DNA of 64,000 bases from Polaromonas sp. JS666 (GTDB lineage: Bacteria; Pseudomonadota; Gammaproteobacteria; Burkholderiales; Burkholderiaceae_C): contig NC_007950.1 of assembly GCF_000013865.1 (NCBI RefSeq), positions 248,001-312,000 on the forward strand, read 5' to 3'. The notes under the pieces are model-generated. The model had not been told where the DNA came from. It did no database searches and worked only from the letters and a program-made list of their open reading frames with translations. The position numbers were made by a program, and so were the translations under genes. Within the stretch, counting starts at the first letter, position 1, and every line of letters begins with the position of its first letter. This document shows, in pieces, positions 31,168 through 57,838 of the stretch.

Positions 31168-31181
31168 CCGCCGATTTTGAT

Positions 31182-31338: not shown

Positions 31339-31401
31339 TTAAAATTTCCTTCCCTTGAAGGTGCATAATAAGTGCATAATTGATGCATTGAAAGAAACAA
31401 C

Positions 31402-32348: not shown

Positions 32349-32714
32349 CTTGGCGACCGGCTGGCGCCGCCACGGGGCACAGCCATCTGGACAGACGGCG
32401 CTGATCGCGATGGGCGTGGACCGAGACGACCGCAAAGTGGCTCGAACAGTCCGCGGGGGGTAGCTCTTACCCACCTATCTCTGCCGGCAAGCCGCTTGCC
32501 ACTATCCACCTGACTGACCAGGCGCAAGCTTGAAATCAACAACCAGCAGCTGTATCATTCCGATCGGGTACTTCTGGTGTGCCTGCCGCTCACGTTGGCA
32601 AAACCGATTAACCAGCTTTTCTTTGGGTCTACCCCAATCCCTCGTCGCAAGCAAATTACTTCATGCGCTGACGAAATAGTGAGCATTTCGAATGCTGGCG
32701 CGAAGGAGTGATTT
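32349..32714. other. Gene-free stretch after the RES toxin
   Basis: About 365 bp with no supported gene, terminator or transposon end. I searched for the missing left end of the Tn3-family element here and did not find one. Confidence 0.4.
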
Positions 32715-32861
32715 ATGGTTTCAGCGATTCAAGAGGCAGCACGTTCATCCGGGTGCACCGGTTATTTTGCATGGGAGATCACGCCGGAAGTCTTTGGCGC
32801 CTGGCTCATGTCGGCGGCATGGCTTGAAGTTTCGGGAACATCTTGCAAACTGATTGCATGA
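32715..32861 (+). CDS. Possible small ORF (48 aa)
   Basis: The ATG is preceded by AAGGAG with a 6-bp spacer, an excellent start signal. The product (MVSAIQEAARSSGCTG..., then WEITPEVFGAWLMSAAWLEV) has no known family. It may be the 5' end of a gene cut off by the neighbouring transposon. Confidence 0.3.
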   Translation: MVSAIQEAARSSGCTGYFAWEITPEVFGAWLMSAAWLEVSGTSCKLIA

Positions 32862-33045
32862 TTTCCAAAACTGACATTCAGGCCTACTTGGGGTTCCACG
32901 CCGGAACCGCCGAAAATTCCGTCGTCCCGATCAGGGGTCGGTCGAGATTCGCGAAGGTTTCTTCGGAAAATGGCGTAGGCCATTGATTTTCAAAGACTTT
33001 CCGGCATTAGTTTCCTCTACATTTCTTGCGTATTCGAGCCTCGCC

Positions 33046-34731: not shown

Positions 34732-34769
34732 AAACCGAAGTTTAGCTTCTTGGAGTGACTAGGGCGAGA

Positions 34770-34786
34770 ACAAACGTTCTGTTTGT
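34770..34786. repeat. Candidate core recombination site for the TnpI-like recombinase
   Basis: ACAAAC and GTTTGT flank a 5-bp GTTCT spacer in the 139-bp gap between the divergent recombinase and transposase genes. The arm length and spacing fit tyrosine-recombinase core sites. Inferred, not shown. Confidence 0.5.
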
Positions 34787-34870
34787 AGAATTCACATAGA
34801 CCCTCTTAAATCACTCATAAATCCATCATCCGGGCACTGACCTGCCAGGCCGCAGGACCCTTGCTCGACA

Positions 34871-37800
34871 ATGACGAAAGCAACCAACAAGCAGCTGTCC
34901 GTACTCTCGCCCGCCGAACAAGAGGCCCTGTACGGATGGCCGGACTTCGACGACGCCCAGCGCCTGGAATACCTCGCTCTGTCCGCACCCCAACTGGCCT
35001 TGGCCAGTGGCCGCACCGGTCTGCACAACCAAGTGTGGTGCATCCTGCAAATCGGCTACTTCCAGGCCAAGCAGACATTTTTCAGCTTCACCTGGGACGA
35101 CGTCGCCGACGACCTGGCCTTCGTGCTCAGTCGCTACTTCCCGGGCCAAGCCTTCCAACCCCGTGGCGTCACGAAGCATGAACACTACAGCCAGCGTGCC
35201 CTGATCGCCCAGCTGTTTGGCTACCGCCTGTGGTCCAGCGAGTTCCAGGACCACCTGGTTCCAGCAGGCCGAGCAGATCGCGCGCCGAGATGTCGGCCCT
35301 GCATTCATTGTCGCCGAACTCATCGACTACCTGCGCAGATTCAAGGTGGAGCGGCCCGGATACACGACCATGCAGACGGTGATCAGCCAGACCCTGACTG
35401 CCGAACGCCATCGTCTGTCCAAGTTGTTGTCCTCGAAGCTGGACGCCGCGACGACGACATCGCTTGCGCACTTGCTGGTGCGCGACGACACCCTGTCCGA
35501 ACTGGCCGCGCTCAAGCAGGACGCCAAGAGTTTCGGCTGGCACCAGATGGTGCGAGAGCGCGAGAAGCGCGCCCGCCTGGAGCCCCTGTACCTCGTGGCC
35601 AAGAGCCTGCTGCCGACGCTTGCGATCTCGCAGCAAAACCTGCTGTACTACGCCAGCCTGGCGAACTTCTACACCGTCTTCGAGCTGCGACGGATGAAGC
35701 CGGAACAGGCAAACCTCTACTTGCTGTGCTACGCGTGGCAGCGCTACCGCCAGCTCACCGACAACCTGGTGGATGCGCTGGGTTACCACACCAAGAAGTT
35801 CGAGGATGAGATCAAGAATCTGGCCCAGCAGGCATTCATTGAGCAGCAGCTCAAGCGTCAGAAGGAATCGCCCCGGCTCGGGCGTTTGCTCCTGCTGTAC
35901 GTCGACGACGCCTATGCCGACACGACACCCTTCGGTAAGGTTCGCCGGCGCGCGTTCAAGATCATGCCGCGTGCAAAACTGCAGCTCGTCGGCGAACGCA
36001 TGAGCACCAGACGCAGCAGCCAGCTGACGCTGCGCTGGGAGGCCGTCGACAAGGTTGCTGCTCGCGTGCGACGCCATTTGAGACCGCTGTACGAGGCGCT
36101 TGAACCGACGGCCGCCAACCCCGAGAACCCCTTCCTCGCCGCTCTGATTTGGATGAAGGACGGGTTTGCGAAACAGCAACCGCTGTCGCAACGACCGGCC
36201 GAGGAGTTCCTTGAGAAGACCGTGCCCCCGAGCCTGCGCCTCTATCTACTGACCTTCGACGCCGCAGGAAATGCCACCGGGGTGCAGCCCGACCGTTACG
36301 AACTTTGGGTCTACCGCCAGTTGCGTCGGCATCTGCACTCGGGCGAAATCTATGTGGACGACAGCCAGCAGCATCGCCACCTGAGCGCCGAACTCGTCTC
36401 GGCCGACCAGCAAGCGGCGGCCTTCGAGCAGATGGACATCCCTTGGGTGCGTCGGCCGCTGGCCGAGCGGCTCACGGAGCTGACCACGGAACTGCACACC
36501 CAATGGCTGGCCTTCGATCGCGAACTGCGCACGGGCGAACTGGCACATCTCGACTACGACGAGGCCAGTGCAACATTGACGTGCCGGCGCCCCAAAGCCG
36601 AGAACGAGGACACGCCCGACGCCTTCTACGACCAGTTGCCATTCTGCGACGTGGCTGATGTCCTGCGCTTTGTGAACCAGGAGTGCCAGTTCCTGTCGGC
36701 GTTGACGCCGCTGCAACCGCGCTACGCCAAGCAGGTCGCCGACGAGAACAGCTTGCTGGCGGTCATCGCAGCGCAGGCCATGAATCACGGCAATTTCTTG
36801 ATGTCGCGTACCAGTGACATTGCGTACCACGTGCTGGAAGCCACCCACCAGCAGTACCTGCGACTGGCCACGCTGCAGGCGGCCAACGACCGTATCAGCA
36901 ACGCGATCGCCGAGTTGCCGATCTTCCCTCACTACTCGTTCGACCTGGAGACGCTGTACGCCAGCGTCGACGGCCAGAAGTTCAGCGTCGCACGGCCCAC
37001 CGTGAAGGCGCGGCATTCGCGCAAATACTTCGGCCGCGGCAAGGGCATGGTCGCCTTCACGCTGCTGTGCAACCACGTGCCGCTACAGGGCGGGCTCATC
37101 GGAGCGCACGAGCTCGAGGCGCATCACGTCTTCGACATCTGGTACCGCAACACCTCGGACATCGTGCCGACCGCGATCACCGGCGACATGCACAGCCTCA
37201 ACAAGGTCAACTTCGCCATCCTGGATTGGTTCGGGCCGCGCTACGAGCCGCGCTTCACAGACCTCGACAAGCAGCTCGGCGAGATCTATTGCGCGGGTGA
37301 CCCGGCGCAGTACGCGCACTGTCTGATCAAGCCTGCTGGGCAGATCGACCTGCCGACGATCGTCAACGAAAAGGCGAACATCGACCGCATTGTCGCCACG
37401 CTGGGCCTGAAGGAAATGACCCAGGGCACGCTCGTCCGCAAGCTGTGTACCTACGACGCCGATCCAACGCGGCAAGCGGTCTTCGAATACGACAGGCTGG
37501 TTCGCAGCATATACACGCTGCGCTACCTGCGAGACCCGCAGTTGCAGCGCTTCGTGCACCGCTCGCAGAACCGCATCGAGTCCTATCACCAGCTGCGGTC
37601 AGCCATCGCGCAGGTCGGCGGCAAGAAGGAACTCACAGGACGCACCGACCTTGACATCGAGATCAGCAACCAGTGCGCCAGGTTGATCGCCAACGCGATC
37701 GTCTACTACAACTCCGCGATCCTGTCGCGCCTGCTGACCACGTACAAGGCCAGCGGGAACGAGACGGCGCTGGCGCTCATCACATCGACATCGCCCGTGG

Positions 37801-37895
37801 CCTGGCGGCATGTGCACTTGAATGGGCGCTACGCGTTCCGCGACGGCGGGCAAGCCATCGATCTGGACACCATCATCCGGGCGCTGAATCTATAG
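34871..37895 (+). pseudogene. tnpA: Tn3-family transposase with one N-terminal frameshift
   Basis: Near-complete transposase of about 1,005 residues. The first about 125 residues (LSPAEQEALYGWPDFDDAQR) read in one frame, and the rest reads in another from about 35245 (TTWFQQAEQIARRDVGPAFI onward). The DDE domain is intact: YASVDGQKFSVA, AITGDMHSLNKVNFAI, SQNRIESYHQLRSAIAQ. One base appears missing or extra near CAGGACCACC (about 35245). It could still be rescued by frameshifting but is most simply inactive. Confidence 0.85.
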
Positions 37896-38899: not shown

Positions 38900-39118
38900 A
38901 TGTCAATAGTGACCAAGCCGACAGCCAAACAACTCGATAAACTCTCGGCGACGCAAGTGCTCGCGCTGGGCCAGGACTATCTGGGTATGCTGGGCGCCGC
39001 GCAGGCCGTGGGCCTGAAGGCCGGCAAGGACAGCTTCCTGGGCAGGCTAGGCAGCACGCCTCTTCTTTGCCCCAGGCGTTTGTGCAAGCCCTGAGCGGCG
39101 CGCAGCTCAACGCGTTAA
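38900..39118 (+). pseudogene. Giant octapeptide-repeat protein, fragment 1 (N-terminus)
   Basis: Starts ATG 38900 (MSIVTKPTAKQLDKLSATQV) with no signal peptide. A one-base loss near 39055 shifts the frame: SFLGRLGS should continue as NASSLPQAFVQALSGAQLNA, which is read in the next frame to the IS5 junction. The downstream parallel SFLSNLSSNAAGLTAKFLQA supports the reconstruction. The gene continues after the IS5 at 40279. The ribosome-binding site is weak. Confidence 0.75.
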
Positions 39119-40278
39119 GGCAACACTGAACAAGCCAGTGTTTTTGGACCACCCATCGATTTCTTTGCGTAATGTGGACTAGCCTGGGTTCAGGTGCGCG
39201 TCATTCGACGAATTACGCCCCGAATTCGAGGCCCTGGGCGCATTTCGCGCTCACTGCGGGCGGACTTATGCCGCCAAGCGTGCACGCGCCAAGTAGATGT
39301 TGGCCAGCCCGAGTGCAACAAACGCCCGCGTGGCGTTCTTCGCAAGGCCGCGATAGCGAACCTTGTTGAATCCCCACAGCCGCTTGACCACCGCGAACAC
39401 GTGCTCGACGCGCGCTCGGATCCTGGACTTGTTTCGATTCTTTCCGCGCTCGACCTCATCGACCACGCCGCCCTTGCGGGTGCGCTGGTTGGTGAAGTCC
39501 TTGGCTTGCTGCGCCTTCGATTCGATCTGCGCCTTCTGGCTGGCGTAGGCGCTGTCGCCGTATACACGCTGCTCGTTGCCGTGCAGCAGATCGGGCAGCG
39601 GGTGCTTGTCATGCACGTTGGCCGGCGTCACCATGGCGCTGTGCGTCAGCCCCGTCTGGCTGTCCACCCCGATGTGCATCTTCATGCCGAAGTACCACTG
39701 CTGGCCCTTGCGTGTCTGGTGCATCTCGGGGTCGCGCGTTTTGTCGGCGTTCTTCGTCGAGCTTGGCGCCGCAATGATGGTGGCGTCAACGATGGTGCCT
39801 GTGCCGACTTTCATGCCCTGGGCTTGCAGCACCTCGCCCACCTTCGCAAACAGCGCCTCACCAAGCTTGTTGGCTTCGAGTTTGCGCCGAAACTTCAGCA
39901 GCGTCGTGCCGTCGGGCACCCGCTCACGGCCCAGGTCGATGCCCACGAAGCGCCGCAGTGCCGCGCTGTCCAGCAGCGCTTCCTCGCAGGCCTCATCGGC
40001 CAGATTGAACCAATGCTGCACGAAGTACATGCGCAGCATGCGCTCCAGACCGATCGGCGGGCGGCCATTGCCCGCCTTGGGATAGTGTGGTTCGATCACC
40101 GAGCACAACTCTTGCCACGGCACGATCTGATCCATCGTGCCCAGAAATGCATCGCGCCTGGTCGGCCTGCGGTACTGTTCGAATCCGGCCCCTTGATCGG
40201 CGGACATGGCGAGAGTTTGTTGCTTCATCGAACCACAACGCGCCACCCCGCCGACGCGTGGACTTAATCAGCGTTGCC
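39119..40278 (-). mobile_element. IS5-family insertion in the repeat-protein gene
   Basis: 1,160 bp. Inverted repeats start GGCAACACTGAACAAG (left) and GGCAACGCTGATTAAG (right, reversed). The target TTAA is duplicated at 39115-39118 and 40279-40282, which fits the YTAR target of IS5. Removing the IS and one TTAA rejoins the host frame (LNALSPTATSSL). Confidence 0.92.
39266..40228 (-). CDS. IS5-family transposase (320 aa)
   Basis: DDE transposase with TIVDATII, VYGDSAYASQ and RARVEHVFAVVKR, and the N-terminal PPIGLERMLRMYFVQHWFN of the IS5 group. I chose the ATG at 40228 (MKQQTLAMSADQG); the frame is open slightly further. No frameshift; the IS appears intact and possibly active. Confidence 0.9.
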   Translation of the reverse strand: MKQQTLAMSADQGAGFEQYRRPTRRDAFLGTMDQIVPWQELCSVIEPHYPKAGNGRPPIGLERMLRMYFVQHWFNLADEACEEALLDSAALRRFVGIDLGRERVPDGTTLLKFRRKLEANKLGEALFAKVGEVLQAQGMKVGTGTIVDATIIAAPSSTKNADKTRDPEMHQTRKGQQWYFGMKMHIGVDSQTGLTHSAMVTPANVHDKHPLPDLLHGNEQRVYGDSAYASQKAQIESKAQQAKDFTNQRTRKGGVVDEVERGKNRNKSRIRARVEHVFAVVKRLWGFNKVRYRGLAKNATRAFVALGLANIYLARARLAA

Positions 40279-43248
40279 TTAAGCCCTACGGCGACCTCAA
40301 GCCTGAGGTACGAGTGGCTCAGGTCATTGGGCAAGAAGCAGGCACAGGATTTGCTCAACGGAGACCAGACATTCCTGGGCGAGCTTGGCGGCGGCTTGGG
40401 GTATGGGTACCTGAGTGCTGAGTTTGTAGGTGCGCTGCAGGTGAGCCAACTGCTGCAAATCCGCCAACCCGCGCAATTGAGCAAGGAGGCACTGGCAGGC
40501 CTGAGTGCAGAGCAGGCTAAGGGGCTGGTCGGGAACATATCCTTTCTGTCCAACCTCTCCAGCAACGCAGCAGGCCTGACGGCAAAGTTCCTGCAGGCGC
40601 TGAGTCTGTCGCAAGTGGGCCAGATCACCGCGAGCATGAGCAGTGCGATGACGTCCGATCAGATCAAAGCGCTAGTGTTCCAACCCAAGGACCACAACTC
40701 CAACCCCAACGGCTACTTTCTGCTCAACGCATTGAGCGCAGCGGCGGCAGCGGCGTTGACGACAAAGGCGCTTGGCAACCTGGACGGCTCGGATGCGATC
40801 TTGCTCAGGGTGCGGACGGGGATGAGGACGACAACGTTGCTGTCTAACCTGCAGGGCAACGCACAGGGGCTCACCGCCGCCTTCATAGGGTCACTGGACA
40901 CGGCGCAGCTGAACTTGCTGACACCAACTGCAGTGGCCGCGCTGACGCCATCGGCGCTGGGCGCGCTCGATGCAAACGATGCAGCGAACTTGCAGCAGGC
41001 CGCAGGGCCGACGTTTGTGGCAAGGCTGCAAGCCAATGCCAGCGGCCTGAGTACGGCCTTCCTGGGGGCGCTCACCACAGTGCAGATCGCGGCGATCAGC
41101 GCTACAGCCATGGCCGGCCTCACGGCTGCGCAGCTCGGCTCGTGGACCACCACCCAGATCAAGGCGCTCACCACAGTGCAGATCGCCGCGATTACCAAGG
41201 CGGCCTTTAGCGGCCTGACGAAGGCGCAGCTCGACTCCTGGAGCACCGCCCAGATCGGCGCCCTGTCTGCTGCTGTGGTGAGCGGTATCACAACCGATCA
41301 GTTCAAAGCCTGGTCAGGCGCGCAGATCAGCGCACTGTCTACTGATGCGGTGAGCGGCTTCACGGCCACGCAGCTCGGCTCGTGGAGCGTGACCCAGATC
41401 GATGCACTCAAGCCAGCGCAGATCGCGGCGATCACCCCCGCCGCCATGGCCGGTCTGATGGCCGCGCAGCTCGGCTCGTGGAGCGTTAGCCAGATCGATG
41501 CGCTCAAGCCAGCTCAGATCAACGCCCTCACGGTCGCCGCCATGGCCGGCCTCACGGCCACGCAGCTCGGCTCGTGGACCACCACCCAGATCAAGGCGCT
41601 CACCACAGTGCAGATCGCCGCGATTACCAAGGCGGCCTTTAGCGGCCTGACGAAGGCGCAGCTCGACTCCTGGAGCACCGCCCAGATCGGCGCCCTGTCT
41701 GCTGCGGCGGTCAGCGGTATCACAACCGATCAGTTCAAAGCCTGGTCAGGCGCGCAGATCAGCGCACTGTCTGCTGATGCGGTGAGCGGCTTCACGGCCA
41801 CGCAGCTCGGCTCGTGGAGCGTGACCCAGATCGATGCGCTCAAGCCAGCGCAGATCAACGCCCTCACGGTCGCCGCCATGGCCGGCCTCACGGCCGCGCA
41901 GCTCGGCTCGTGGACCCCCGTCCAGATCAAGGCATTCACCACAGCGCAGATCCCGAAGATCACGGCCGCCGCCATGGCCGGCCTCACGGCGGCGCAGCTC
42001 GGCTCCTGGACCACCGATCAGATTGGCGCCCTGACAGCGACCCAGGTGCCGTTCCTGGGGGACGCGGTGCTCGCGGCCTCCGAAAGCCGGCTGAGCCCGG
42101 CGCAGCTGGGCTCGCTCAGCCTGGCCCGCCTGGCCGCCGTAGCGCAATTGCTGACGCCAGAGCGCCTGGCGCACTGGAGCGAGATCGGCCTGCTCCCCTA
42201 CCTGGTCCCTCTGATGGGTCAGCCCGCCTTTGACGCGGTGGCCCTGAAGGCCCCGCAAGCGATGTTGGCCTATGCCCTGGCCGAGCAGATCCGCGGTGCC
42301 TCCGGCGCCGCCCTGCAGGCGCTGGCACCCTTGATCAACACCGCCGACAGCCTGGAGCCGCTCAAAGCCCTGCTGCAGGCGCCCAACATCACCAAGGCGT
42401 CCTTTCTGGCCATTGGCTATGACCTCGTTGCAGACGCCCTGCAGACCTATGATGACCTGGCTCTGTCGGTCACCGAGCAGGGCTGGTTCAATGCCTCTGG
42501 CCATGGCCGCATCCTCAAGGACATTGCCAGCCTCACCCAGGCCGATCTGGCCACCAAGAAGTACGAGTGGGTGGCCAAACACATCTCCGAGCTGAGCCAT
42601 ACGCAGCGCTCCTGGCTCACCATCGGGCAACTGGTCGATACTTCGCCGGCAACGATTGATCTGTATGGTCAGGCGGACAACTTTATTACGGCACTGGCCC
42701 TGGCGAAGCCCAAGCTGCAACAGCAGCTCACGAAATCGCCTTTGTACAAACTCACTGATGCGGAATTCCAGGCCCTGGACGGCAAGCTCCTGTTGCAGGA
42801 CATCGCTGTCCACATCATCTTTACCAATCCAGCGGCAGGTACCTGGGATTGGCTGCGCGGAAATGACACTAGCCAAACCAACTCGCTTTTTGTGCTGAGC
42901 GGCATGCTCGATGACCGCCACATCACGCTGATCACGGCCGAACAGTGGGTGGGCAAAGATGCCGACGGCCAAACATTACTCGACCGCATGATTGGCAGCA
43001 ACTTCAGCAGCGAGAAGCGTCCTCATTACCTGCCTCTAATTACCGCCGACACCTGGGCAGCTCCCGTGGCCGACCCCGCCAACCCGGGCTCGACCATCCC
43101 GCTGATTGATCTGCTGCCGGCAACGCCCGAGGTTATTCACCTGCTGTCCGCACAGTTGCTGGGCACTTCGGTGATAGATCCGTTTGATTCGCTCCCCATC
43201 CTGGGCAGCGAGGACGGTGATGACAACGATGCGGACGGTGATGCGTAA
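40279..43248 (+). pseudogene. Giant octapeptide-repeat protein, fragment 2 (repeat core)
   Basis: About 985 residues. Residues coded by about 41065-42045 are a tandem array of roughly 40 octapeptides with the pattern [ST]xx[Q/A]-hydrophobic-x-[A/G/S]-hydrophobic, for example TTTQIKAL, TTVQIAAI, TKAQLDSW, STAQIGAL. A 432-bp block is present twice. Before and after are diverged versions of the same unit. The fragment ends in an acidic DGDDNDADGD linker where IS66 inserted; the TAA at 43246 is IS sequence. No catalytic motif recognised. A helical solenoid or elongated surface or binding protein is the likely form. Confidence 0.8.
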
Positions 43249-43284
43249 TAGCGCGGTGAATACCGTACTTGACAGCGTAGGCGA

Positions 43285-43875
43285 TCAGATGGTGATGCCG
43301 TCAAGGCGTTCCTGAGCTTCCATCGGGTCAAACTCGCTGGGGTCGAATGCGCCCCCACATCGTTGGAGCATGGCCTGATGTTCAGGGTGTTGTGGATCAC
43401 GAATGGCTTCGAGGAATTCTTCATAGCCCGGTGCACCACCAATGTCTTCTGGTGGACAGGCGTTTCTGCCGGTCATGCACATCGCCGTGTCCAGCGGCAC
43501 GCCCAGATCCACGATGCGCTCCAACTTGACCTTGTGAGCCCAGTAGTCGCCATAGTCATAGACCCAGGTGAATGAAGTCGAACCTGCCAGGGCCTTCACC
43601 AGGGATACGCGGGACTCATCCTCGACGCCGGGCTCCATTTCCTCATCGGCCTGCCCATACATGGCATCCGCAAAGATGAATTCATGCAGGTGCCCGCCTT
43701 GCCAGCCCATGACCGCCAGCAAGATGTGATGAAGCTTGGAGAGCTTGATGGTGCTCGGCACACCGATGCGTCGCCACACAGCAGGTTTGACGCCTTTGAG
43801 CTCTACCCGAAGTTGATACGACTTCGTTGACTTCGAACGAGTCTTTGCTGGAAGCTTAAAAAGTTGCGCAGTCAT
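43285..43875 (-). CDS. Plasmid pRiA4b ORF-3-like protein, IS66 passenger (196 aa)
   Basis: Matches the pRiA4b ORF-3 family: YQLRVELKGVKPAVWRRIGV, then LSKLHHILLAVMGWQGGHLH, FTWVYDYGDYWAHKVKLE and the terminal Cys-Gly-Gly segment. Family function is unknown, although such genes are common riders in IS66-type elements. It lies between tnpC and the element end, on the same strand. Confidence 0.88.
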   Translation of the reverse strand: MTAQLFKLPAKTRSKSTKSYQLRVELKGVKPAVWRRIGVPSTIKLSKLHHILLAVMGWQGGHLHEFIFADAMYGQADEEMEPGVEDESRVSLVKALAGSTSFTWVYDYGDYWAHKVKLERIVDLGVPLDTAMCMTGRNACPPEDIGGAPGYEEFLEAIRDPQHPEHQAMLQRCGGAFDPSEFDPMEAQERLDGITI

Positions 43876-43926
43876 GCGGACAATTTTCGCATCCGTGCCA
43901 GATGCCTGGCAAATCGCAGAGTGCGC

Positions 43927-45540
43927 TCAGGCTGCCAACGGCAGGGGCTGCGCAACACCACGTCCCAGATGCTTGGCCACTGCCCAGGGAAGCAGTTCAT
44001 CAATTCGGTTAATGGGATGGTCTGCAATGCGCTCCAGCACATAACGCAGGTAGGTCTGTGGGTTGATGCCGCACAGCTTCGCTGTGCCAATGAGCGTGTA
44101 GATCACCGCTGCCGTGTGCCCCCCGCCATCAGAGCCAAAGTGCAGATAGTTTTTTCTGCCAATCGCGACCCCTCTGAGGGAGCGCTCGGCAATATTGTTG
44201 TCCGCCTCAATGCGCCCGTCATCAAGGAACTGCGTTAACGCCCGCCAGTTGCTAAGGCTGTACCCAATGGCCAGCGCCATGGGTGATTTGGCCGATATTT
44301 GACTCAGCGCGGCGTGCAGCCACTCGTGCATTTCTTCCAGAACCGGTCGCGTTCGTAATTGCCGCTGACTTCGTCGAAGTTCGGCGCTCTGTCCCCGGAT
44401 GTCAGACTCCACCGCATAGATTTTGGCAATCCGTTGCAAGGCCTGATGCGCCAAGGTGCCAGGTAAAAGCTCCTGCTGCTTGTGGATTTCAAAGTGCTTT
44501 CGTCTCGCGTGAGCCCAGCATGCAGCTTCTACAACGCTGCCATCATTAAAAAGCGCGTTGTATCCGGCAAACGCGTCGACCTGCAGCACACCGCGAAACC
44601 CTTTGAGATGTTGCCTGGGGTGTTCGCCCCGGCGATCCTCTGAGTATTGGAACCATACGGCTGGATGTGCGGTATCACCCCAACTGCGGTCGTCCCGGAC
44701 ATAAGTCCAGAGGCGGCCCAGGTGGGCCTTGCCTTTGCCCCCACCCAGTGCACGCGTGGGGGTGTCATCACTGTGGACCTTGTAGGCCTGCAGCGCATAG
44801 CGGCCGACCGCCTGCGCCAGGGGAGTCAGCAGCGCGCCCCCGCTGCCCACCCAGCCACACAGTGTGGAGGGGGCCAGGATCACGTCTTCGCGTGCACTAA
44901 TTTGGCTTTGCCGGTACAGAGGGCAGTGGTCGGCGTATTTGCTGACCATCACATGTGCAATCAAACCGGCGCCGGCCATGCAGCGATCAATCGGACGGCT
45001 CGGTGCTGCAGCCTGGGTCACCGTGTGGCATTGGGTGCAGGCAAACTTCGGGCGGATGTGGCGAATGACTTTGAAGCTGCCGGGTTCATAGTCCAGCACC
45101 TCAGAGACGTCCTGTCCAATTTGCTGCAGACCTGTTCCACATGCACCGCATTTGCAATCGGCGGCGCAGGCACTGTGGATCACCTCTTCGCGGGGGAGAT
45201 GCGCAGGCAATCCAGGCTGGACCGGCTTTGCAGATTTCGTGCGGCGCTTCTTGCGTTCATCTTCGAGGTCAGCAACATTGCTGCCTGTCGCACCGTCTTT
45301 TACATCGTCAGTTGGTGCACCGGCAGTCACCAGCGGTGCGAGTGCCGCGCTCAGGAGTTCAAACTGGGTCTGGGCGGCATCCATCTTCTCGCTGGAGCGG
45401 CCGTAGCGCATGCGCTTCAAGTGGGAGACTTCAATCTTGAGCTTCTCTATCATCTGGCGCAGTGCCTTGATCGTGACGTCGCGCTGTGTCACATCCTGCG
45501 TCAAGGAATCAATGGTTTGGAGCAGCGCCTGGGAACTCAT
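43927..45540 (-). CDS. tnpC: IS66-family transposase TnpC (537 aa)
   Basis: Catalytic subunit. A leucine-rich coiled N-terminus (LLQTIDSLTQDVTQRDVTIK) precedes a CxxC zinc-finger-like part (CKCGACGTGL, then FACTQCHT), the DDE domain (YKVHSDDTPTRAL, QVDAFAGYNALF, DNNIAERSLRGVAIGRKNY) and a C-terminal IS66 tail. ATG 45540 is preferred over an upstream TTG at 45570. Confidence 0.92.
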   Translation of the reverse strand: MSSQALLQTIDSLTQDVTQRDVTIKALRQMIEKLKIEVSHLKRMRYGRSSEKMDAAQTQFELLSAALAPLVTAGAPTDDVKDGATGSNVADLEDERKKRRTKSAKPVQPGLPAHLPREEVIHSACAADCKCGACGTGLQQIGQDVSEVLDYEPGSFKVIRHIRPKFACTQCHTVTQAAAPSRPIDRCMAGAGLIAHVMVSKYADHCPLYRQSQISAREDVILAPSTLCGWVGSGGALLTPLAQAVGRYALQAYKVHSDDTPTRALGGGKGKAHLGRLWTYVRDDRSWGDTAHPAVWFQYSEDRRGEHPRQHLKGFRGVLQVDAFAGYNALFNDGSVVEAACWAHARRKHFEIHKQQELLPGTLAHQALQRIAKIYAVESDIRGQSAELRRSQRQLRTRPVLEEMHEWLHAALSQISAKSPMALAIGYSLSNWRALTQFLDDGRIEADNNIAERSLRGVAIGRKNYLHFGSDGGGHTAAVIYTLIGTAKLCGINPQTYLRYVLERIADHPINRIDELLPWAVAKHLGRGVAQPLPLAA

Positions 45541-45626
45541 AGGGCATGACTTTGCCAGCAAATTTGCCAATGGAACAGAGCACTTTCACTGTCAACCAAA
45601 CCACTCATTCCTGCAGTGCAAAACGC

Positions 45627-45974
45627 CTACATCGCACGCGTCGGTTGCGTCGTGCGAACCGGCATTCGCCAGTCAATTCCTTCGAGCAGCATGGACAGTT
45701 GCGCTGGTGTCAGAACCACCGAACCGCTCAAGGCCTGTGGCCATATGAAGCGGCCTTTCTCAAGCCTCTTGGCAAACAGGCACAGCCCCTGTCCATCCCA
45801 CCATAGCAACTTTACGATGTCACCGCGCCGACCCCGAAACACAAAGACATGGCCGCTAAACGGATCCTGCTCCAACGCGCCTTGCGCAAGGGCGGCCAGG
45901 CCATCAAAGCCACGGCGCATGTCGGTCAGTCCGCCAGCCAGCCAAATCCGCGTGCCCGACGGCAAGCCGATCAC
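45627..45974 (-). CDS. tnpB: IS66 accessory protein TnpB (115 aa)
   Basis: GTG start at 45974 overlapping the tnpA stop. The family core is present: TDMRRGFDGLAALAQ, then HVFVFRGRRGDIVKLLWWDG and LCLFAKRLEKGRF. TnpB is required for IS66 transposition; its activity is not defined. Confidence 0.9.
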   Translation of the reverse strand: MIGLPSGTRIWLAGGLTDMRRGFDGLAALAQGALEQDPFSGHVFVFRGRRGDIVKLLWWDGQGLCLFAKRLEKGRFIWPQALSGSVVLTPAQLSMLLEGIDWRMPVRTTQPTRAM

Positions 45975-46375
45975 GCGGTCTCCCGAAGTGCCATCAGGAC
46001 GCTGCGCACACTGGCGGGATCGACGCTGCCACGCAGCAGCAAGCGGGCACAACCAATCTCAACCTCGATGACGCTCTCCTTGCTCGCAGGCCTAGCGGTT
46101 GCGGGTGCAGACACGGCTAGAAACGATTCTTGATGTTCGACGGACACAGGCAGAAGCACGGGCTGGCGAGCTGCCATTGGGGAACGTTTGCGCTCTAGTT
46201 TGGCACGCCTCCACTTGAATACCAAATTGGCATTGAGGCCATGCTCCAGGGCAACGGCGGCCACAGATGCGCCGGGTTGTTCGATCAGTTCGAGAAGCTT
46301 GCGTTTGAAGGCCGCACTGTGCCTGCGCTTTGTGTTGATGACAGGGGATGAATTCGACTCTTGCATGGTGTGCAC
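45971..46375 (-). CDS. IS66 accessory protein TnpA (134 aa)
   Basis: Helix-turn-helix DNA-binding subunit: RRHSAAFKRKLLELIEQPGA, then VALEHGLNANLVFKWRR. The C-terminal half is variable. Its stop overlaps the tnpB GTG, so the two are coupled. Confidence 0.88.
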   Translation of the reverse strand: MHTMQESNSSPVINTKRRHSAAFKRKLLELIEQPGASVAAVALEHGLNANLVFKWRRAKLERKRSPMAARQPVLLPVSVEHQESFLAVSAPATARPASKESVIEVEIGCARLLLRGSVDPASVRSVLMALRETA

Positions 46376-46474
46376 TCTGGACAGTTAAGTGCACACCTCC
46401 AATGGAGTGCATCTTCTGCCCATACTGCCCGCCACCTCAAATCTCCGCAAGAACGGTATTCACCGCGCTATTAC

Positions 46475-49036
46475 GGTGATGCGGGCACCGATGGCCCCGC
46501 GCCCTCCGTCTACCACACGGCCCTGATCAACCTCTTGACCGATGCGCAGATCGCCGCTATTGATCCGCAGGCTTTGGTGACGCCCCTTGACGCCGCCGTC
46601 GATCCCGATGACCATGGGCGTCAGTTGGCGGGCAAGAAGTACCGCACGGTTCTAGACAAGATGAATCGCAAACAACTGCTCGCGCTCACAGCTCGAGAGC
46701 TAATGACAGAAGTGACTTTTCCGGATGGCACAACAAGGCCATTGATTACGGCCTTTCCTCTCGACAATGGCGTCGATTTGTCGTATCTCGAATCTTCGGT
46801 GTTGATCTATCGAGTTAATGGCGTTCGGCTCGTGGACAGATTGAACTCACAGCAATTTGCGATGGTTTCCTCGGCCCAGTGGGCGGATCAATTCGTCGCT
46901 TCCGACGAGATGCAGACCGGTTCCGCTATCAACTTCCTAGCCAAAGAGCAATTTGACCTTCTACTGGAGGCAAGAGGGGCTGCATTGCTGCTGGCCCCGG
47001 TAAGGAACCACACCACTTACCTCATTCGGCTACTCGATGATGAGCGATTCAATCAGGTTTTTCATTACCCATGGACCAACCCTCAGGATCTTCTGACCCT
47101 TTTTGCGGAGGCAGACACCCGGCAATTGTATACACTTGATCGTCAGGCATTGGAGTCTCTCATTGAGGCTGGATTGCTGAACCAGCTCGATGGTACCGGG
47201 CAACCTTTGTTAAGCGATGTCCGCTTCAATGCGCTCAATCGCCTTGCATTACTCGGCAATGAGGCTGCTTTCTATCCAGACGCCGGGCGGTTTGACGCTT
47301 ATTTGCAGCAATTCAATGGGGCTGAAACCTTGGTCAACAGTGTTCTAGACGGACACATGGGCGCCAGCTCTCTTGCCCGGCAAGACGTGCAGCGCCTGAC
47401 ACCTGAACAGGCTGCAAAAATATACAAAAAGTTGGGGGCGAAAGAACGAAGCTACTTGACTGTCGCCCAAACCACCTATCTGCTAACTCAGCCAAGCACC
47501 GGCATCTCATTCGACATCATCAAGGATTTCGATCGAGCAGTTCAAGTTGCCACCATAGAGCTCTGGCTAGGAAAAATTTTTCAACAAAAGTATCGCCGAG
47601 AATCTTTCGAACGTTGGGTACAACAAATAGGGCTTACTTTTCAGGACGTCGCACACCTAGGGTATGCAGTAGAAATGCTGCCTATCGAAATGCGTACTAT
47701 CTTAGTACGAAGCATGACCATTGACGATGTTCTTGCTAACCTGTGGTGGTTTACGCGGCAGGAAATTGAGGGAATACCCGTCCCCTTCTTCAGCCAGCAG
47801 ATCGCGAGTGGAGAAACAAGCCTTTTACAGGCATTGGACACCGCTGGGGTTCTCAATATAGCCATGTGGATGATGCTTGGGAGCGATGTAGATGAAGATG
47901 AGATAGTCAGTGGACTGCGCCCAACACAAATCTCTCTCTTGGAGCCTAAAATTCTTTCGCGTATTGCAAACGACCTCGGGAATGCGCAAATTGCAGCATT
48001 AACTTTCTTTCAGATTGACCAGTTACAGCCCCGCACCGCACACCGATTAGCACCATTTCTCAGTGGGCCTCAGACCGTCCGGCTTTTCCAACGCGACGAC
48101 GACGATTATGACAGCTATACACTGAACGCTGACTCTTTCGCATATGTAGTCAACCACAGAGTTGAGGTATCTGAGCAGATAAATCTTTGGTTGACGAGAG
48201 AGATTGAGGAGTTAAGCGATGGGACCTCCCCACATTTCAACCATCCGCCGTTGGTCGCCGCGTTGTATGAATACTTCAGCGACGCGCAGCGCTTGCTGGT
48301 TTCAGTGGCCGCCATTCAAGGCATGACCCGGGACGAGGTGGCCCAAATGCTCGACGCTGTCCCGCTGGCGCAGCACATCGCATCGCTGACACCGACGCAA
48401 CTGGCCATGATGGACTCGCAGCGCCACTTGATCGTCAACACGCTGACCCCAGCGCAGTTCGCGGCCCTGACCGTGGATCAGCTCAGGGGAGTTGATAGCG
48501 AAAGCGGTCAACCGCTCGCGACCCTGTTGGATGCCGCGCATTTGCGCCTGCTGACGCCTGGAGTTCTTGCCGGGATATTTGACCAGTTGGGGATGGAGCA
48601 AATCACCATAGCGGTGGTGCAGCGCCTGGAGGTGGGACCTTGGCTTCTCGATCTCTTGACCCTGCCAGCGTTCCTCCCCGACTATGTTGCGTGGCTCTCG
48701 CCGGAGCAACTGCTAACGATAGTGCAGATAGTGGACTCTAACCAATTTGTGCTCGGACAGGCCCTGAGTCCTCAACAGATACCCTATCTCACCGTTGCGC
48801 AGTTGACGGCAAGACTGGATCGCACCACAAGCCTTCATCGGGCGGGGCCTTTGGTCCGCGAACTCCGCGAGGCACAGGTCACTGCGCTGACGCGGGCGCA
48901 GATTGCGAGTGGCGTGCTTTTTGAGATGATGCCCGCGCTTCAATTTAGAGACCTGACGTACCAACAGGTACTCGGCGCCCTGGAAGATGAACACTTTCCG
49001 ATTGATTATTTTGGATCTTCGTTAATTCCACTGTGA
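46475..49036 (+). pseudogene. Giant octapeptide-repeat protein, fragment 3
   Basis: Continues in frame from fragment 2 once IS66 is removed (GTDGPAPSVYHTALINLLTD). About 850 residues. The repeats are degenerate here: LTDAQIAAI, LNSQQFAMV, LTPEQAAKI, LTPAQFAALTVDQL, LTRAQIAS. Long stretches between them are predicted helical and rich in Leu, Asp and Gln. No transmembrane segment or catalytic motif was seen. It ends at the ISL3 junction, where the last residues and TGA come from the IS. Confidence 0.75.
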
Positions 49037-50326
49037 ATTTTTTCTAGGCCATCGCCAAGTTCAACTTGCCACAATGAAACAGAATCCTTGCCCGGTAGTT
49101 GGTGAAGTTGCGAAACCCACGGGCATTTGCCTTGATGAGTTGGATGGCGCTGTTGAAACCTTCCGCACAGGCATTGCTGATTCTGTGCTGGCTGAAGTTG
49201 AGTAGCCCTTCTTCGTGGCGCCTGAGCATCTTGACGACCTTTTTGACAGGCTCCAACTTGCTGCGCATCGCGTTGTTCGACCAGGCTTTGAAGAAGCGTT
49301 TGGCAGCACCCTTGTAGCTGTAGCTCCAGAACTGGGTGAAGTTTTCCTTGATACACCAAGCTCTGCTGGTTTTCAGATTGAGCTGGTTCAAGGCCCGAAA
49401 CGAGATGGCTTCAGCGCTGCGTCCATCGGGGTACTTCTTGAGCCATGCCCATTTGCTGCCAGCCAAGGGGGAGGTTCCTGCTTGGGACAACTTGCGGTGC
49501 TCCTGCTTTCTCACCGCATCCACTGCCTCGCCGAGGTACTTGGAGATGTGAAACTTGTCATGCACGATGTCCGCCTGCGGCATGCATTGTCTGGCGGCAC
49601 TCATGTACGCCGGCCACATGTCCATGGCCACCGCCTTGACCGACAGGCGCTGCGCCGGCGTGAGTGTTTCCAACAAACCAACGGCCGCTTCAAGCTTTCG
49701 CTCTGGCACCAGGTCCAGCACCCGCGAGCGGTCAATGTCGGTCAGAATGCTGGCGTAGGTGTGCCCCCTCTCGGAACTCTTCTCATCGATGCCAAGATGC
49801 GAAATCTCTTCTTCGGTGCGCCGCAGCATGCCTCTTTCCACGGCACTGACCATGATGGCGTTGACCGTGCTCCAGGACAGTCGTGTGAGCGTGCATACGG
49901 CTTGCGTGGTCGGACAGGCCTCAAGCAGTTTGATGACAAAGCCGGCCATCAGCGTGGTGACCCGGCTGTAGCGCTCGGCCCAGGGCACCGTCAATTCCTC
50001 GACCGTGCCGTCACCGTATTTGAGCTGGGGAATACGTGCCTTGATGACCGTCTCGAACTGGCAGGTATCGAGGTGGCGCCACTGGCGCTCGCTCCAACCA
50101 TTGACGTGTGCTCTCTTGGTCGCATCAGTTGGGTCCGCCCACACCTGGCCCTTCTTCAAAACAACTTCGACCACCACACGCTGCTCCGCCAAAGACAGGT
50201 CCACCTTCTTCACCGACCAGGGCGACTTCAGTCCAAGAAGATGTTCATACAACGCGGTGTCCTTCATATTGATCTTGATAATTTTGAAAAAAAGGATTTT
50301 CCTGCAGCGAGCAAAAAATCACAGTG
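49029..50326 (-). mobile_element. ISL3-family insertion in the repeat-protein gene
   Basis: About 1,298 bp. The ends share CACTGTGA followed by a T-run (left CACTGTGAATTTTTT; right, reversed, CACTGTGATTTTTTGC). I do not see a clean 8-bp target duplication: the left flank is GTTAATTC and the right flank AAATTGAT. The junction may have been altered after insertion. Confidence 0.8.
49044..50267 (-). CDS. ISL3-family transposase (407 aa)
   Basis: Intact ISL3 transposase: ISHLGIDEKSSERGH, VKAVAMDMWPAYMSAARQ, IVHDKFHISKYLGEAVD and the terminal NACAEGFNSAIQLIKANARG with the catalytic Glu. The first about 100 residues hold the zinc-finger/helix-turn-helix region. No frameshift was seen. Confidence 0.93.
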   Translation of the reverse strand: MKDTALYEHLLGLKSPWSVKKVDLSLAEQRVVVEVVLKKGQVWADPTDATKRAHVNGWSERQWRHLDTCQFETVIKARIPQLKYGDGTVEELTVPWAERYSRVTTLMAGFVIKLLEACPTTQAVCTLTRLSWSTVNAIMVSAVERGMLRRTEEEISHLGIDEKSSERGHTYASILTDIDRSRVLDLVPERKLEAAVGLLETLTPAQRLSVKAVAMDMWPAYMSAARQCMPQADIVHDKFHISKYLGEAVDAVRKQEHRKLSQAGTSPLAGSKWAWLKKYPDGRSAEAISFRALNQLNLKTSRAWCIKENFTQFWSYSYKGAAKRFFKAWSNNAMRSKLEPVKKVVKMLRRHEEGLLNFSQHRISNACAEGFNSAIQLIKANARGFRNFTNYRARILFHCGKLNLAMA

Positions 50327-51439
50327 AAATTGATGAAGAACCATTATTTTTATGAGCTAAGCCCGCACGTTGTCGGTGATCTGAACAGCAATCCTGCAGC
50401 CGTCGATCAGTTCGGTCTGACCGAACCCATTCACACATACCTGCAAGGACTGGAAGTATTCAGGCTCTATGGAGATGACCTGGGCGCCGTCTACGAATTC
50501 CTGTCCTACGCACAGCAGCTACAACTGACGAGGGCGCAGGTGCAATCAATCCCGGCGCAGCGGCTGGCGCATATATTTCTGGCCCTGACGGATGACCACC
50601 TGGCGATGCTTACCCCTGCGCAACTGGGGGGGGCGAACGGTATGGTTAGCTACCTCAGTCCGCAGGAAATTGGCCAGCTCAAAGGGCCGCAACTCCTGGC
50701 TGTCGGTCATTTCTTGTCGCGAGATCAAATTGCATCACTTTCTCTCAGCCAGCTAACGCCAGCGTTTGTTGCCGCCATGACGACGGCGCAAATCGCAGGT
50801 CTGACAGTCAGTCAACTGAGCCAGCAAGTCGTCGCGGACATGCGGGGCGATCAGGTCGGTGCCCTCAGTGAAACCCAGGTGCTGCGACTGGCCGAGGCAG
50901 GGGTGATGCTCAACCAGGTGCAGTTCGACGAACTCGCGCCAAGCATAGTCGCCTACAACCTGACCGAGTTCGAGCAGGCCTATGGAGACGTGCTGCTGGA
51001 CAACTATTTTGTTAATTTGGACGCATCCAGCTGGTCGACTTTGGAGCAAAGAGACGACTTGCGGTCCGATGCGCCGCATATGCTTGAGTTCCTCACCCAC
51101 ACACAGCAGCACAATGCAAGTTTCGTGGACGTCATCCGAACCTTCGACGTGCCCGCCTGGCTGGACCCGGTGCACACGAACGACGCGCCACCTGTGGCGC
51201 TGCTGGCCCCGGACCTTGTGAACAACATAAGCCCCACCGTGCTGACAGAGGTGGTGGAGATTGGCACTCAGTGGGAAGATGTGGCGCATCAGCTAACGCC
51301 AGATCAGTTGAGGGCCATGCCTCAGAACCTATTTATGACAATCAGTGCAACCTTTAACAATGACAACCTGCAATTCAGAGACCCGGCCAGCCAGGCCACC
51401 GTGCAGCAACTGTTCTCGCAGTATGGACCGCCTCCGTAG
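50324..51439 (+). pseudogene. Giant octapeptide-repeat protein, fragment 4 (C-terminus)
   Basis: About 370 residues with the same repeat style: LTRAQVQSIPAQRLAHI, LTPAQLGG, LSPQEIGQL, MTTAQIAGLTVSQL, LTPDQLRAMPQNL. It ends QQLFSQYGPPP at TAG 51437-51439. The apparent ATG at 50333 only follows the IS; it is not a natural start. The C-terminus shows no sortase, autotransporter or RTX-type signal. Confidence 0.75.
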
Positions 51440-54870: not shown

Positions 54871-57499
54871 GCAAATCTGTTTCTTCGGGAACGCCTGGCC
54901 CGCGCGCGGGATTGGGATGCTCAATAGCCGCTCGGACCACACCTCGCTTCTTCCAGAGACCAAGCGCTGGTTCTACGACCACCGCATACTGCAAATTGCG
55001 CCCCGTGAACTCAAAAGCCTGATAGCTGGTGCACTCAAAGACCATGAAGCGCAACAGCTCAAGGCGATTGAGCATGCGTATGGCCAGCAAAAGCTTCAGG
55101 AGTGGGAGTTGGCCCTGAACTCCAAGACCAAGGATGGCACCCCATTGCAATCCTGGCTGTGGGCGGCACCGCTGAAGCAGTCCACGGTCCAGATCACCCA
55201 GTTTTTTGACAAGGTGGACCATTTGCGCACCATGGGTGTTGCCGACCATTGGCCCGCCACCGTGAATGACGCGGCCGTTCGCCACTATGCCCGGCGTTGC
55301 GCACACCGCGCGCCATCGGTCAGCAAGCGCATTACCCCGACACGCCGCAGTCTGGAAGTCGCGTGTTTTCTGCGCTATGCCCTGTGCACGTCCTCGGACC
55401 AGTTGCTTTTGATGCTGCGCCGCTGGATTCGCAAGATGGCCAACGATGCCGCGCGCGAAACCACGCCCAGCTATGCGGACGCCCACGCCAAACTGACGAA
55501 GTTTGCGCTGAGCGTCAAAAAGCTGGCCAACGAGGAAGCGCTTTCGCACGCCGATCTCAAATCCAAGCTGGTCGAAGTGACTACTGCGGTACTGACCGAC
55601 CCCAAAATCAGCCGCTCTGCGCTGGCAAGAACCTACCTGGTTGATCATCCAAACCAGTCGCGTGCTTTGTTGGGCAGGCTGCTGACGCTGCCTCTGGCCG
55701 CCCAGGCAGATCATCCAGTGATGCAAGCGCTGGAAGTGCTGCGCAAAACCTACGCCGCCCGTGCGACATCCCTGGCCACGACACCAACCATCAAACTGGG
55801 GAACCGGTGGCAGAAGGTGATCGCTGGCGCCGACCGCCAGAAGGCCCTGGCCGCGTTTGAATGGGCGACGCTATTTGCCTTGCGCATGGCGCTGCGAAAC
55901 GGTTCCGTGTACCTGGATCACAGCTTCGTGTTTCGCAGCCAGGCCACGCTTTTCATCACCAGGGAAGACTGGCAAAAGAGTCGGGACATGCACTATTCCC
56001 AACTGGGCCTCTCCATGGACCCCAAGGAAACCCTGGAGCCGTTGGCAGAACACCTGGAAAAGCGGCTGCAAGACTTTGCTGCGGCCGCGTCATCTGGCCA
56101 AATTCAGGTTGACGCTGACGGCATTCACCAGGAGCGCAAGGTGGCCAGTCCTGAAGAGGTTCGGGTGACCGCGTTGCGCCGCGCCCTGATGGAAGGCAGA
56201 CCACTGGGCCAGTTGCCGGAAATCGTGTTGGAGATTGACAGCGCCGTGCGGTTTAGCTGGATGCTGTTGGGCCGCGAACCCAACAGCCGACGAGAGCTCC
56301 TGATGGTCTACGCGGCGGTCTTCGCCCATGGCACCTCGATGTCAGCGTCTGACGTATCGCGCATGATTCCGGAATTGCCGGTGGAGGCGGTACGCCAGAC
56401 CATGAAGCGTCTGAGGGATGAACGCCGGTTGCGCCAGGCCAGCGATGCTGTCGTCCAGTACCTGCACCGGTTTGAAATTGCCAAGCACTGGGGCCGCTCG
56501 GATCTGGCGTCCTCGGACATGATGAGCCTGGAGACCGAGCGCGCCATTTGGCAATCGCGCGCCGATCCACGGCGGAAAACTGCATCCATTGGGATCTATA
56601 CCCATGTTCGGGACGGCTGGGGCATTGTGTACGACCAGCCCATTGTGCTCAATGAGCGCCAGGTCGGGGTCGCCATCGAAGGTGCTATTCGGCAAAGCGC
56701 GGTGGAAGACGTGGGCCAACTTGCCGTCGACACCCATGGGTACACGGATTTCGGCATGGCGGTGGCCAAGCTGCTCAGGTTGGACCTGTGTCCCTGCCTG
56801 GCGGACATCAAGCACCGCAAGTTGTACGCGCTCAAAGGCTACACGGTGCCGGACGTTCTGGATCGAGTCGTGGCTTGCACTCTGGAGCTTTCTGTCATGG
56901 AGGCTGTGCTTGACGAATTGGTGCGCATTGCGGCGTCCATTCGCAGCGGTCAGTGCAGTGCCGTACAGGCGTTGACCCGGTTCGGATCTGCCGCGCGCGG
57001 CCAATCCGTTTATGACGGCGGCGTTCAGTTCGGGCAGTTGCTATGCACGATCTTCAAGGTGGACTATTTGTTGAATCCGCTGTTCAAATCTGAGATCCGT
57101 CATGCGCTCAACCGTGGGGAGTCCTCCCACACCTTGCAGCACGCCATCCATTCCGGGAAGATTCCAGCAGCGCTTTCCAAGCGCACGGAGTCGCTCGCGG
57201 CCGTGTCGTCGGCACTGAGCCTTTTGTCCAACAGCGTGATGGCGTGGAATGCGGGGCACATGCAACCCGCTTGGGAGGGGATCAAGGCTGCTGGCGGCGA
57301 GCCACTCACTGAGGATCTGCGCCGCGTTGCGCCCACCAACATTGAGGGGATCAACCTGCGCGGGACGTTTGATTTTCCGGTGGAGAAATTTGCTCAGCGA
57401 ATTCTGCCCAGCTCTGTGAATCTCAAAGATTTGGGTAAGAGGCGTATCGCATGATGAGGTAGTCCGCTGGGACCGCCAAAAATTCCGCGGCTACCCTAC

Positions 57500-57527
57500 T
57501 TGTTAATTTAACCTATTGGGTTATAAT
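57500..57527 (+). promoter_or_regulatory. mqsRA promoter and MqsA operator
   Basis: TTGTTA (57500-57505) and TATAAT (57522-57527) are separated by 16 bp. Between them lies the palindrome TAACCTATTGGGTTA (57509-57523), close to the AACCT-N3-AGGTT box bound by MqsA. Repression by blocking RNA polymerase is therefore likely. Confidence 0.75.
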
Positions 57528-57533
57528 GACGAC

Positions 57534-57836
57534 ATGGAAAAAGGCACTCCTCACTGCAAGCTGCCAGTCGTTCAAGCCTTGATCGAAGCCGGGAGGGTCC
57601 AAGCAACGGCAAGCGCCTTCGGCGGTGCTCGTGACTTGGGTATCAATGACCTGACTGGGATGTGCGCTGTTGTCATGTCGCTCACGTTCGCCAACTTCTA
57701 CAAGAGCATGACGACCCATGCCGATCACCGGATTTGGCAAGACGTGTACCACGCCAAGACAGCCAACAGTGCCGATGTGTACTTGAAGCTAACCGTCATT
57801 GATGACGTTTTAATTGTTTCTTTCAAGGAGCTGTGA
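57534..57836 (+). CDS. mqsR: MqsR-family toxin, mRNA interferase (100 aa)
   Basis: A RelE-fold ribonuclease that cuts mRNA at GCU-like sites in the E. coli homologue. The length (100 aa versus 98) and motifs match: MEKGTPHCKLPVVQALIEAG, NFYKSMTTHADHRIWQDVYH and LKLTVIDDVLIVSFKEL. K57, Q69 and Y83 align with the catalytic residues K56, Q68 and Y81. The ATG at 57534 is preferred over a TTG at 57516, which lies inside the operator. mqsA follows after 2 bp. Confidence 0.93.
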   Translation: MEKGTPHCKLPVVQALIEAGRVQATASAFGGARDLGINDLTGMCAVVMSLTFANFYKSMTTHADHRIWQDVYHAKTANSADVYLKLTVIDDVLIVSFKEL

Positions 57837-57838
57837 CC

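What the first reader, a model, noticed from the sequence alone, without database searches (positions are those of the whole stretch)
38900..51439. A giant octapeptide-repeat gene broken by three different insertion sequences
Four plus-strand pieces share the same [ST]xxQ-hydrophobic-x-A-hydrophobic octads. Removing IS5 (TTAA duplication) and IS66 (GGTGATGC duplication) restores one reading frame at both junctions. With ISL3 removed the gene would encode about 2,280 residues. I do not recognise the protein as a described family. An eight-residue helical-looking unit is unusual compared with 33-35-residue solenoid repeats.
Basis: partly seen in the sequence, partly recalled or inferred. Interest (0 to 1): 0.8.

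Follow-up and report, generated by a model that had tools for sequence, protein, structure and literature searches.

The report
Broken giant ALTTAQ-repeat protein gene
A plasmid of an environmental bacterium carries the remains of a very long protein gene, built partly of eight-residue helical steps; its relatives may be sugar-coated proteins exported to the cell surface.

Summary
Pieces of one gene (38900-51439) are split by IS5, IS66 and ISL3; codon phase matches across IS66 and ISL3. The ISL3 duplication (ATTATTTT) was missed, its borders were about 16 bp off, and a frame shift in piece 1 is a fourth lesion. Octads are dense only in 41044-42126. "No described family" is wrong: the repeat is Pfam PF20080 (ALTTAQ), and the solved chain 9zem "HeliScrew4" matches by sequence. 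AlphaFold2 shows 4-6-residue helices every eight residues (pLDDT 93.7). Contig sizes equal those I recall for Polaromonas sp. JS666. PF20080 occurs in 103 of 399 genomes of the family, in none of five congeners. New at family level: a GT41 glycosyltransferase type, in 70 of those 399, occurs there only with ALTTAQ genes. It lies 3-5 kb from an HlyD (type I secretion) gene in 10 of 10 genomes; HlyD lies within 35 kb of the giant gene in 7 of 10. Fifteen of 17 giants carry an FrpC-module motif. I infer glycosylated, type-I-exported helical rods; this is not shown. The window copy is dead and divergent, lacks the module, and its genome lacks that glycosyltransferase.

The parts
38900..39118 (+). 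First piece of the ALTTAQ gene: ATG, octad-like residues at once, no signal peptide apparent to the eye; changes frame in its second half (frame-shift lesion)
   Evidence: ATG frame closes at 39094; another frame, open 38941-39129, ends in octad residues and agrees with the frame beyond IS5
39119..40278 (-). IS5-family insertion, TSD TTAA, TIR 16 of 25
   Evidence: PF01609/PF05598 transposase 39266-40246; ends and TSD; two partial relatives but no other full copy in the genome
40279..43244 (+). Second piece (P0001 from about residue 65): loose octads, dense octad array, then a non-octad tail
   Evidence: PF20080 145 bits, 14 stretches; period 8
41044..42126 (+). Dense ALTTAQ octad array (361 residues), including a 432-bp repeat
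   Evidence: TRF 41107-42015, period 432, 2.1 copies, 91% matches; AlphaFold2 pLDDT 93.7 with short helices at period 8
42127..43242 (+). Non-octad tail of the second piece, without detected relatives
   Evidence: 0 hits at E<=1e-3 among 131 proteins compared; none confirmed in genome contigs; only its own genome among 399 of the order
43245..46474 (-). IS66-family insertion, TSD GGTGATGC, TIR 24 of 25
   Evidence: PF03050 transposase 43927-45570; ends; no other full copy in the genome
46475..49012 (+). Third piece (P0002): orphan first half, degenerate octads in the second half
   Evidence: Only itself in the protein search; about 26% identity over about 400 residues to relatives' arrays, E 2e-8 in a database of 131 proteins
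49013..50342 (-). ISL3-family insertion, TSD ATTATTTT, TIR 20 of 25
   Evidence: PF01610 transposase 49044-50267; ends; four other full-length copies in the genome at 87-88%
50343..51439 (+). Fourth piece (P0003): degenerate octads and the gene's end
   Evidence: PF20080 E 0.0072, 16.4 bits, below the cut-off; 9zem E 1.4e-4; octad profile 23.5 bits, best scored shuffle 8.8

Best explanation
This is a pseudogene of a giant ALTTAQ-repeat (PF20080) protein, formerly about 2,270 residues, on a plasmid of an environmental bacterium. Three transposition events and one frame shift killed it. In its working state the octads each formed a 4-6-residue helix plus a turn, stacking into a long helical screw (shown by prediction for the dense array, inferred for the rest). 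By analogy with relatives (inference), such proteins are made without a signal peptide, are O-glycosylated on their many Thr/Ser by a dedicated GT41 transferase, leave through a type I system and act as long surface or extracellular rods in adhesion or as a coat. This copy lacks the relatives' FrpC-like module and its genome lacks the GT41 partner, so it may have belonged to the ALTTAQ proteins without that pair.
For: PF20080 over cut-off. 9zem by sequence for all three long pieces (the third only at E 0.0085). AlphaFold2 model of the array. TSDs and phases. The three long pieces are stop-free over 1,095-2,964 bases; 0 of 2000 simulated sequences were, for each. The link to secretion and glycosylation, from relatives: (1) GT41 type at E<=1e-130 in 70 of 399 genomes, 31 genera, all 70 ALTTAQ-positive. 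(2) GT41 gene 3-5 kb from an HlyD gene in 10 of 10 genomes. (3) Giant within 35 kb of HlyD in 7 of 10, 0.26 expected under uniform placement; GT41 within 40 kb of ALTTAQ in 18 of 30 genomes with printed positions (11 on other contigs, 1 at 433 kb). (4) ABC component LssB-type TIGR03375 over cut-off in 3 of 3 tested. (5) T1SS genes within about 10 kb of the ALTTAQ gene in 4 of 7 plasmid records read. (6) FrpC module by sequence in 3 of 4 relatives tested (not 123).
Against: The genome's only ALTTAQ signal is this locus. It has no GT41 relative at 1e-20, and its three HlyD hits (E<=1e-15) lie on the other two contigs. The FrpC-module motif is absent from the pieces, and it is found in only 5 of 112 other proteins, so the module is not general in PF20080. 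The tail of piece 2 and the first half of piece 3 have no detected relatives, so most of the protein is not shown to be octads. A model of piece 4 alone is poor (pLDDT 56.3). 33 of 103 ALTTAQ-positive genomes lack the GT41 type. Three of 7 plasmid loci read show no T1SS and two of these (Shinella, Roseateles) no GT41 either, within the stretches shown. Secretion and glycosylation are inferred from gene neighbourhood and co-occurrence only.
Confidence: 0.72

Rival explanations
1. The pieces are two or more separate ALTTAQ genes that insertion sequences happened to land between.
For: GC differs (63.5% piece 2, 53.8% piece 3, 57.2% piece 4) and octad density differs. Several giants have a second ALTTAQ-like gene beside them.
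Against: Each stop-free run begins inside an IS rather than at a stop and start of its own. Codon phase matches at IS66 and ISL3. Their TSDs lie inside open frame on both sides.
Confidence: 0.06
2. The protein is a type-I-secreted adhesin of the LapA/RTX kind, with octad rods in place of beta-sandwich extenders, held at the cell surface.
For: LssB-type exporter near giants; FrpC-like module by sequence in three relatives, with its motif in 15 of 17 giants.
Against: The window gene lacks the motif, as do 107 of 112 other ALTTAQ-search hits; no retention module or adhesive domain was sought; LapA features are recalled.
Confidence: 0.35
3. The protein is a scaffold for a protease or other partner: many ALTTAQ proteins are fused to a calpain-like Peptidase_C2 domain.
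For: PF00648 is listed beside PF20080 in many of the 113 hits.
Against: No Peptidase_C2 match in P0001, P0002 or P0003 at E<=1.
Confidence: 0.1
4. The residual frames are still expressed as shorter functional proteins from IS-borne promoters.
For: Frames remain open over 365-988 codons.
Against: Three insertions plus a frame shift; stop-free runs begin inside IS elements; recent inactivation explains the open frames equally well.
Confidence: 0.08

Closest known systems
Pfam PF20080 ALTTAQ_rpt
   Same: Octad [ST]xxQ-h-x-A-h; 14 stretches, 145 bits in piece 2
   Different: Pieces 3 and 4 are below the cut-off; long orphan stretches; gene broken
PDB 9zem HeliScrew4 (120 residues)
   Same: Sequence match E 3.3e-10 over 101 residues, same octad
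   Different: Looks like a regular, designed sequence (my reading of the alignment); not among the rows shown by either fold search; no paper with that name in the library
Mesothelin superhelix (7ued, 8cx3)
   Same: Best Foldseek match of the array model, E 8.9e-5: many short helices
   Different: TM 0.2-0.25, rmsd 10-13 A; may be only a common arrangement
Type I secreted RTX proteins with the FrpC module (6sjw)
   Same: Three relatives match the module; LssB-type T1SS near giants
   Different: Window gene has no such motif; most relatives with the motif read SPI, TPI or TPL just before it, where I recall Asp-Pro at FrpC's cleavage site

Membership tests
PF20080 ALTTAQ repeat | Whole-protein score over the Pfam gathering cut-off (26.4 bits) | tested here: met
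   Piece 2 (P0001): 145 bits, E 4.7e-43
PF20080 ALTTAQ repeat | Same cut-off in pieces 3 and 4 taken alone | tested here: not met
   10.1 and 16.4 bits; above scored shuffles with a richer octad profile
PF20080 ALTTAQ repeat | Eight-residue period | tested here: met
   Lag-8 identity z 9.4, hydrophobicity z 14.1 in residues 320-680; period-8 helices
HeliScrew fold (9zem) | Same three-dimensional screw | tested here: inconclusive
   Sequence match; 9zem is not among the rows shown by the fold searches, so coordinates were not compared
T1SS/GT41-linked ALTTAQ giants | GT41 transferase in the same genome | tested here: not met
   0 matches at E<=1e-20 in G000
T1SS/GT41-linked ALTTAQ giants | C-terminal FrpC-like calcium module | tested here: not met
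   No FrpC chain in phmmer of P0001 or P0003, nor in the 60 of 179 rows shown for P0002; motif absent
T1SS/GT41-linked ALTTAQ giants | T1SS genes near the gene | tested here: not met
   No T1SS hit in the window at E<=1e-6; HlyD hits of G000 on C1 and C2 only
LapA-type adhesin | Membrane-retention module cut by LapG (recalled) | not tested
   Not searched
Mesothelin family | Same fold | tested here: inconclusive

The most novel reading that the evidence does not exclude
ALTTAQ giants define a class of all-helical, octad-built surface rods with their own machinery: a dedicated cytoplasmic GT41 glycosyltransferase that sugars the Thr/Ser-rich steps and an LssB-type type I exporter, with a calcium module near the C-terminus. 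The window gene is a dead, divergent member that has lost, or never had, these partners.
Probability: 0.55. Interest if true: 0.7.

Novelty: new member of a known kind. Interest (0 to 1): 0.5.

Why it matters
The broken gene itself is of modest interest. Following it gave a testable role for a widespread Pfam repeat whose name and accession occur in no paper of the library (0 each). In 399 genomes of the family, one GT41 glycosyltransferase type occurs in 70 and never without an ALTTAQ gene; in the ten genomes looked at it lies beside type I secretion genes. If right, this links bacterial GT41 enzymes, whose substrates are mostly unknown (recalled), to a class of giant secreted proteins built on the shortest regular helical repeat step that I know of.

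Tried and rejected
Phage origin: no match in phages; in viral contigs one stretch matched a pattern and was not confirmed; PHROGs hits are weak, within the array only, with no known function. Close relatives of the gene: none for P0002 in plasmids or genome contigs (18 stretches, none confirmed). In 299 family genomes P0002 hit only its own and, weakly, an octad stretch in G195. P0002 and P0003 found only themselves in the protein search. Those searches could not reach proteins longer than 1.75 times the query, so a full-length homologue could be missed there; searches do not have that limit. No scan of metagenome contigs was available. NCBIfam gave nothing over a cut-off for the pieces; Rfam nothing in the window.

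Limits of the association: the GT41 threshold E 1e-130 was chosen after seeing the gap between 437 and 388 bits, and one search scored at most 3 candidates a genome, so some GT41 genes may be missed. Among genomes with only the weaker GT41 class, 16 of 48 have ALTTAQ, also more than the rest (17 of 281, p 7e-7), so part of the association may be shared lineage or genome size. The 35-kb limit was also chosen afterwards; the ten genomes were picked for long open ALTTAQ frames and include congeners. The seven plasmid loci were picked by me from 64 records, not at random.

Literature: searches gave no papers; some gave listings, none of whose 26 papers I judged relevant (in one search none of the 12 listed held the GT41 phrase). 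Only listings and abstract starts were seen; no paper was opened.
Full report
Where it is. The window is G000:C3:248001-312000 of a 5,898,676-base genome in three contigs of 5,200,264, 360,405 and 338,007 bases. These equal the sizes I recall for Polaromonas sp. JS666 and its two plasmids; the name comes from memory, and the taxonomy lookup only gives its lineage, Comamonadaceae. I treat it as a non-pathogenic environmental bacterium. 'Family' below means the family used by the genome search.

The break. The stop-free frames are 40009-43248, 46352-49036 and 50288-51439. Between them lie transposases of IS5, IS66 and ISL3 type. A search for ends and duplications gave IS5 39119-40278 (TTAA, TIR 16 of 25), IS66 43245-46474 (GGTGATGC, 24 of 25) and ISL3 49013-50342 (ATTATTTT, 20 of 25). 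The ISL3 duplication was not in the finding. Codon phase at the two copies of each duplication is equal for IS66 and ISL3. At IS5, the frame beyond the element agrees with the frame read at the end of the first piece but not with the ATG frame, so that piece also carries a frame shift. In random sequence of the same dinucleotide make-up, 0 of 2000 were open over the length of each long piece. IS66 and IS5 have no other full-length copy in the genome; ISL3 has four at 87-88%. So it is one gene with four lesions, and by arithmetic about 2,270 residues.

The repeat. Piece 2 scores 145 bits against PF20080 ALTTAQ_rpt (cut-off 26.4) with 14 stretches; pieces 3 and 4 are below the cut-off. Period 8 is strong only in residues 320-680 of P0001. 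A profile of 600 four-octad windows from other genomes found weak octads in pieces 3 and 4 (13.4 and 23.5 bits; best scored shuffles 5.6 and 8.8) and none in P0001 681-1053 (61-84 of 100 shuffles per piece gave a score). That stretch has no relative in the searches made with it. The solved chain 9zem, HeliScrew4, matches pieces 2, 4 and, barely, 3.

The relatives. PF20080 has matches at E<=0.001 in 103 of 399 family genomes (100 over the cut-off) and 49 of 141 genera, but in none of the five congeners listed. Its only signal in the own genome is this locus. I read 17 long frames between stops (2,789-4,471 residues; not all are certainly intact, as two lack the usual end); in the printed starts octads begin soon after the first Met in most, and 15 of 17 carry the motif LD[LV][ND]G[DN]G near the end. 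Of 112 other proteins found with piece 2, only 5 carry it. Two of the giants and a Pseudomonas plasmid protein match the FrpC module 6sjw at E 8e-31 to 1.5e-36; a Shinella protein of 2,262 residues does not. Among 113 proteins found with piece 2 (one of them the window's own), many bear PF00648 (Peptidase_C2), some PF05345 or PF13205 (Ig-like), and a few PF00353 or PF05860 (the meanings of these accessions are recalled).

Neighbours. Of 64 plasmid records with a match I read seven. T1SS genes lie within about 10 kb of the ALTTAQ gene in four: Pseudomonas sp. DTU, P. asturiensis, Pseudoroseomonas and Cereibacter sphaeroides 2.4.1. A TPR/GT41 protein lies near in five, these four and Rhodovastum; they are homologous to one another, and the three tested are PF13844 Glyco_transf_41. 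Rhodovastum has flagellar genes but no T1SS in the stretch. Shinella H4-D48 and Roseateles XES5 have neither within the stretches shown and sit beside katG and its regulator. In ten genomes of the family chosen for long ALTTAQ frames, an HlyD gene lies within 35 kb of the giant in 7 of 10 (0.26 expected under uniform placement), and the GT41 gene lies about 3-5 kb from HlyD in 10 of 10. Three of three ABC proteins tested are LssB-type TIGR03375 over cut-off and three of three HlyD proteins pass TIGR01843; three TolC-like proteins stay below theirs.

Co-occurrence. With the P. asturiensis GT41 protein as query on a draw of 399 family genomes bearing the same handles as, 70 have a hit at E<=1e-130, in 31 genera. 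All 70 are ALTTAQ-positive, and 33 ALTTAQ-positive genomes, the own one included, lack it. For 30 genomes with printed positions of both, 19 have them on one contig, 18 of these within 40 kb. The cut was set at a visible gap; at most 3 candidates a genome were scored; lineage is not corrected for except by counting genera; the weaker GT41 class is also enriched (16 of 48 against 17 of 281).

Reading. Shown: one broken ALTTAQ gene; the octad screw by prediction; the association of ALTTAQ, GT41 and T1SS in this family. Inferred: export by T1SS, O-glycosylation of the octads by GT41, a role as surface rod. Not shown for this gene: it lacks the calcium module, and its genome lacks the GT41 partner. 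I therefore file it as a divergent, dead member of PF20080 and put the novelty in the family's proposed machinery.

Noticed in passing
G000 and 398 other family genomes: A GT41 glycosyltransferase type (70 genomes, 31 genera) occurs in this draw only in genomes with ALTTAQ genes, and in ten examined lies 3-5 kb from a T1SS HlyD gene.
   Followed up: partly
L045, L046, L047, L051-L053, L055-L057: Giant ALTTAQ frames often have a second ALTTAQ-like frame beside them with a different start, judged from the first 60 residues printed.
   Followed up: no
L097 (Rhodovastum atsumiense plasmid): The ALTTAQ gene sits beside a flagellar gene set with the GT41 gene downstream.
   Followed up: no
L098 10298-17589 (Pseudomonas asturiensis plasmid): The ALTTAQ region is annotated as three successive CDS, so it may be broken there too.
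   Followed up: no
window 6812-9131, minus strand: ThiF-family and prokaryotic E2 family D genes near each other, perhaps a ubiquitin-like conjugation set.
   Followed up: no
window 12991-14376, minus strand: Rep3-type replication initiator.
   Followed up: no
window 18441-20699, 29326-37895, 54917-59814: Three Tn3-family transposase genes and three phage-integrase-type genes surround the locus.
   Followed up: no
mesothelin entries 7ued, 8fsl, 8cx3 against the array model: Mesothelin fills the top eight Foldseek places, and one hit (P0024) carries PF06060, which I recall as the mesothelin family.
   Followed up: no
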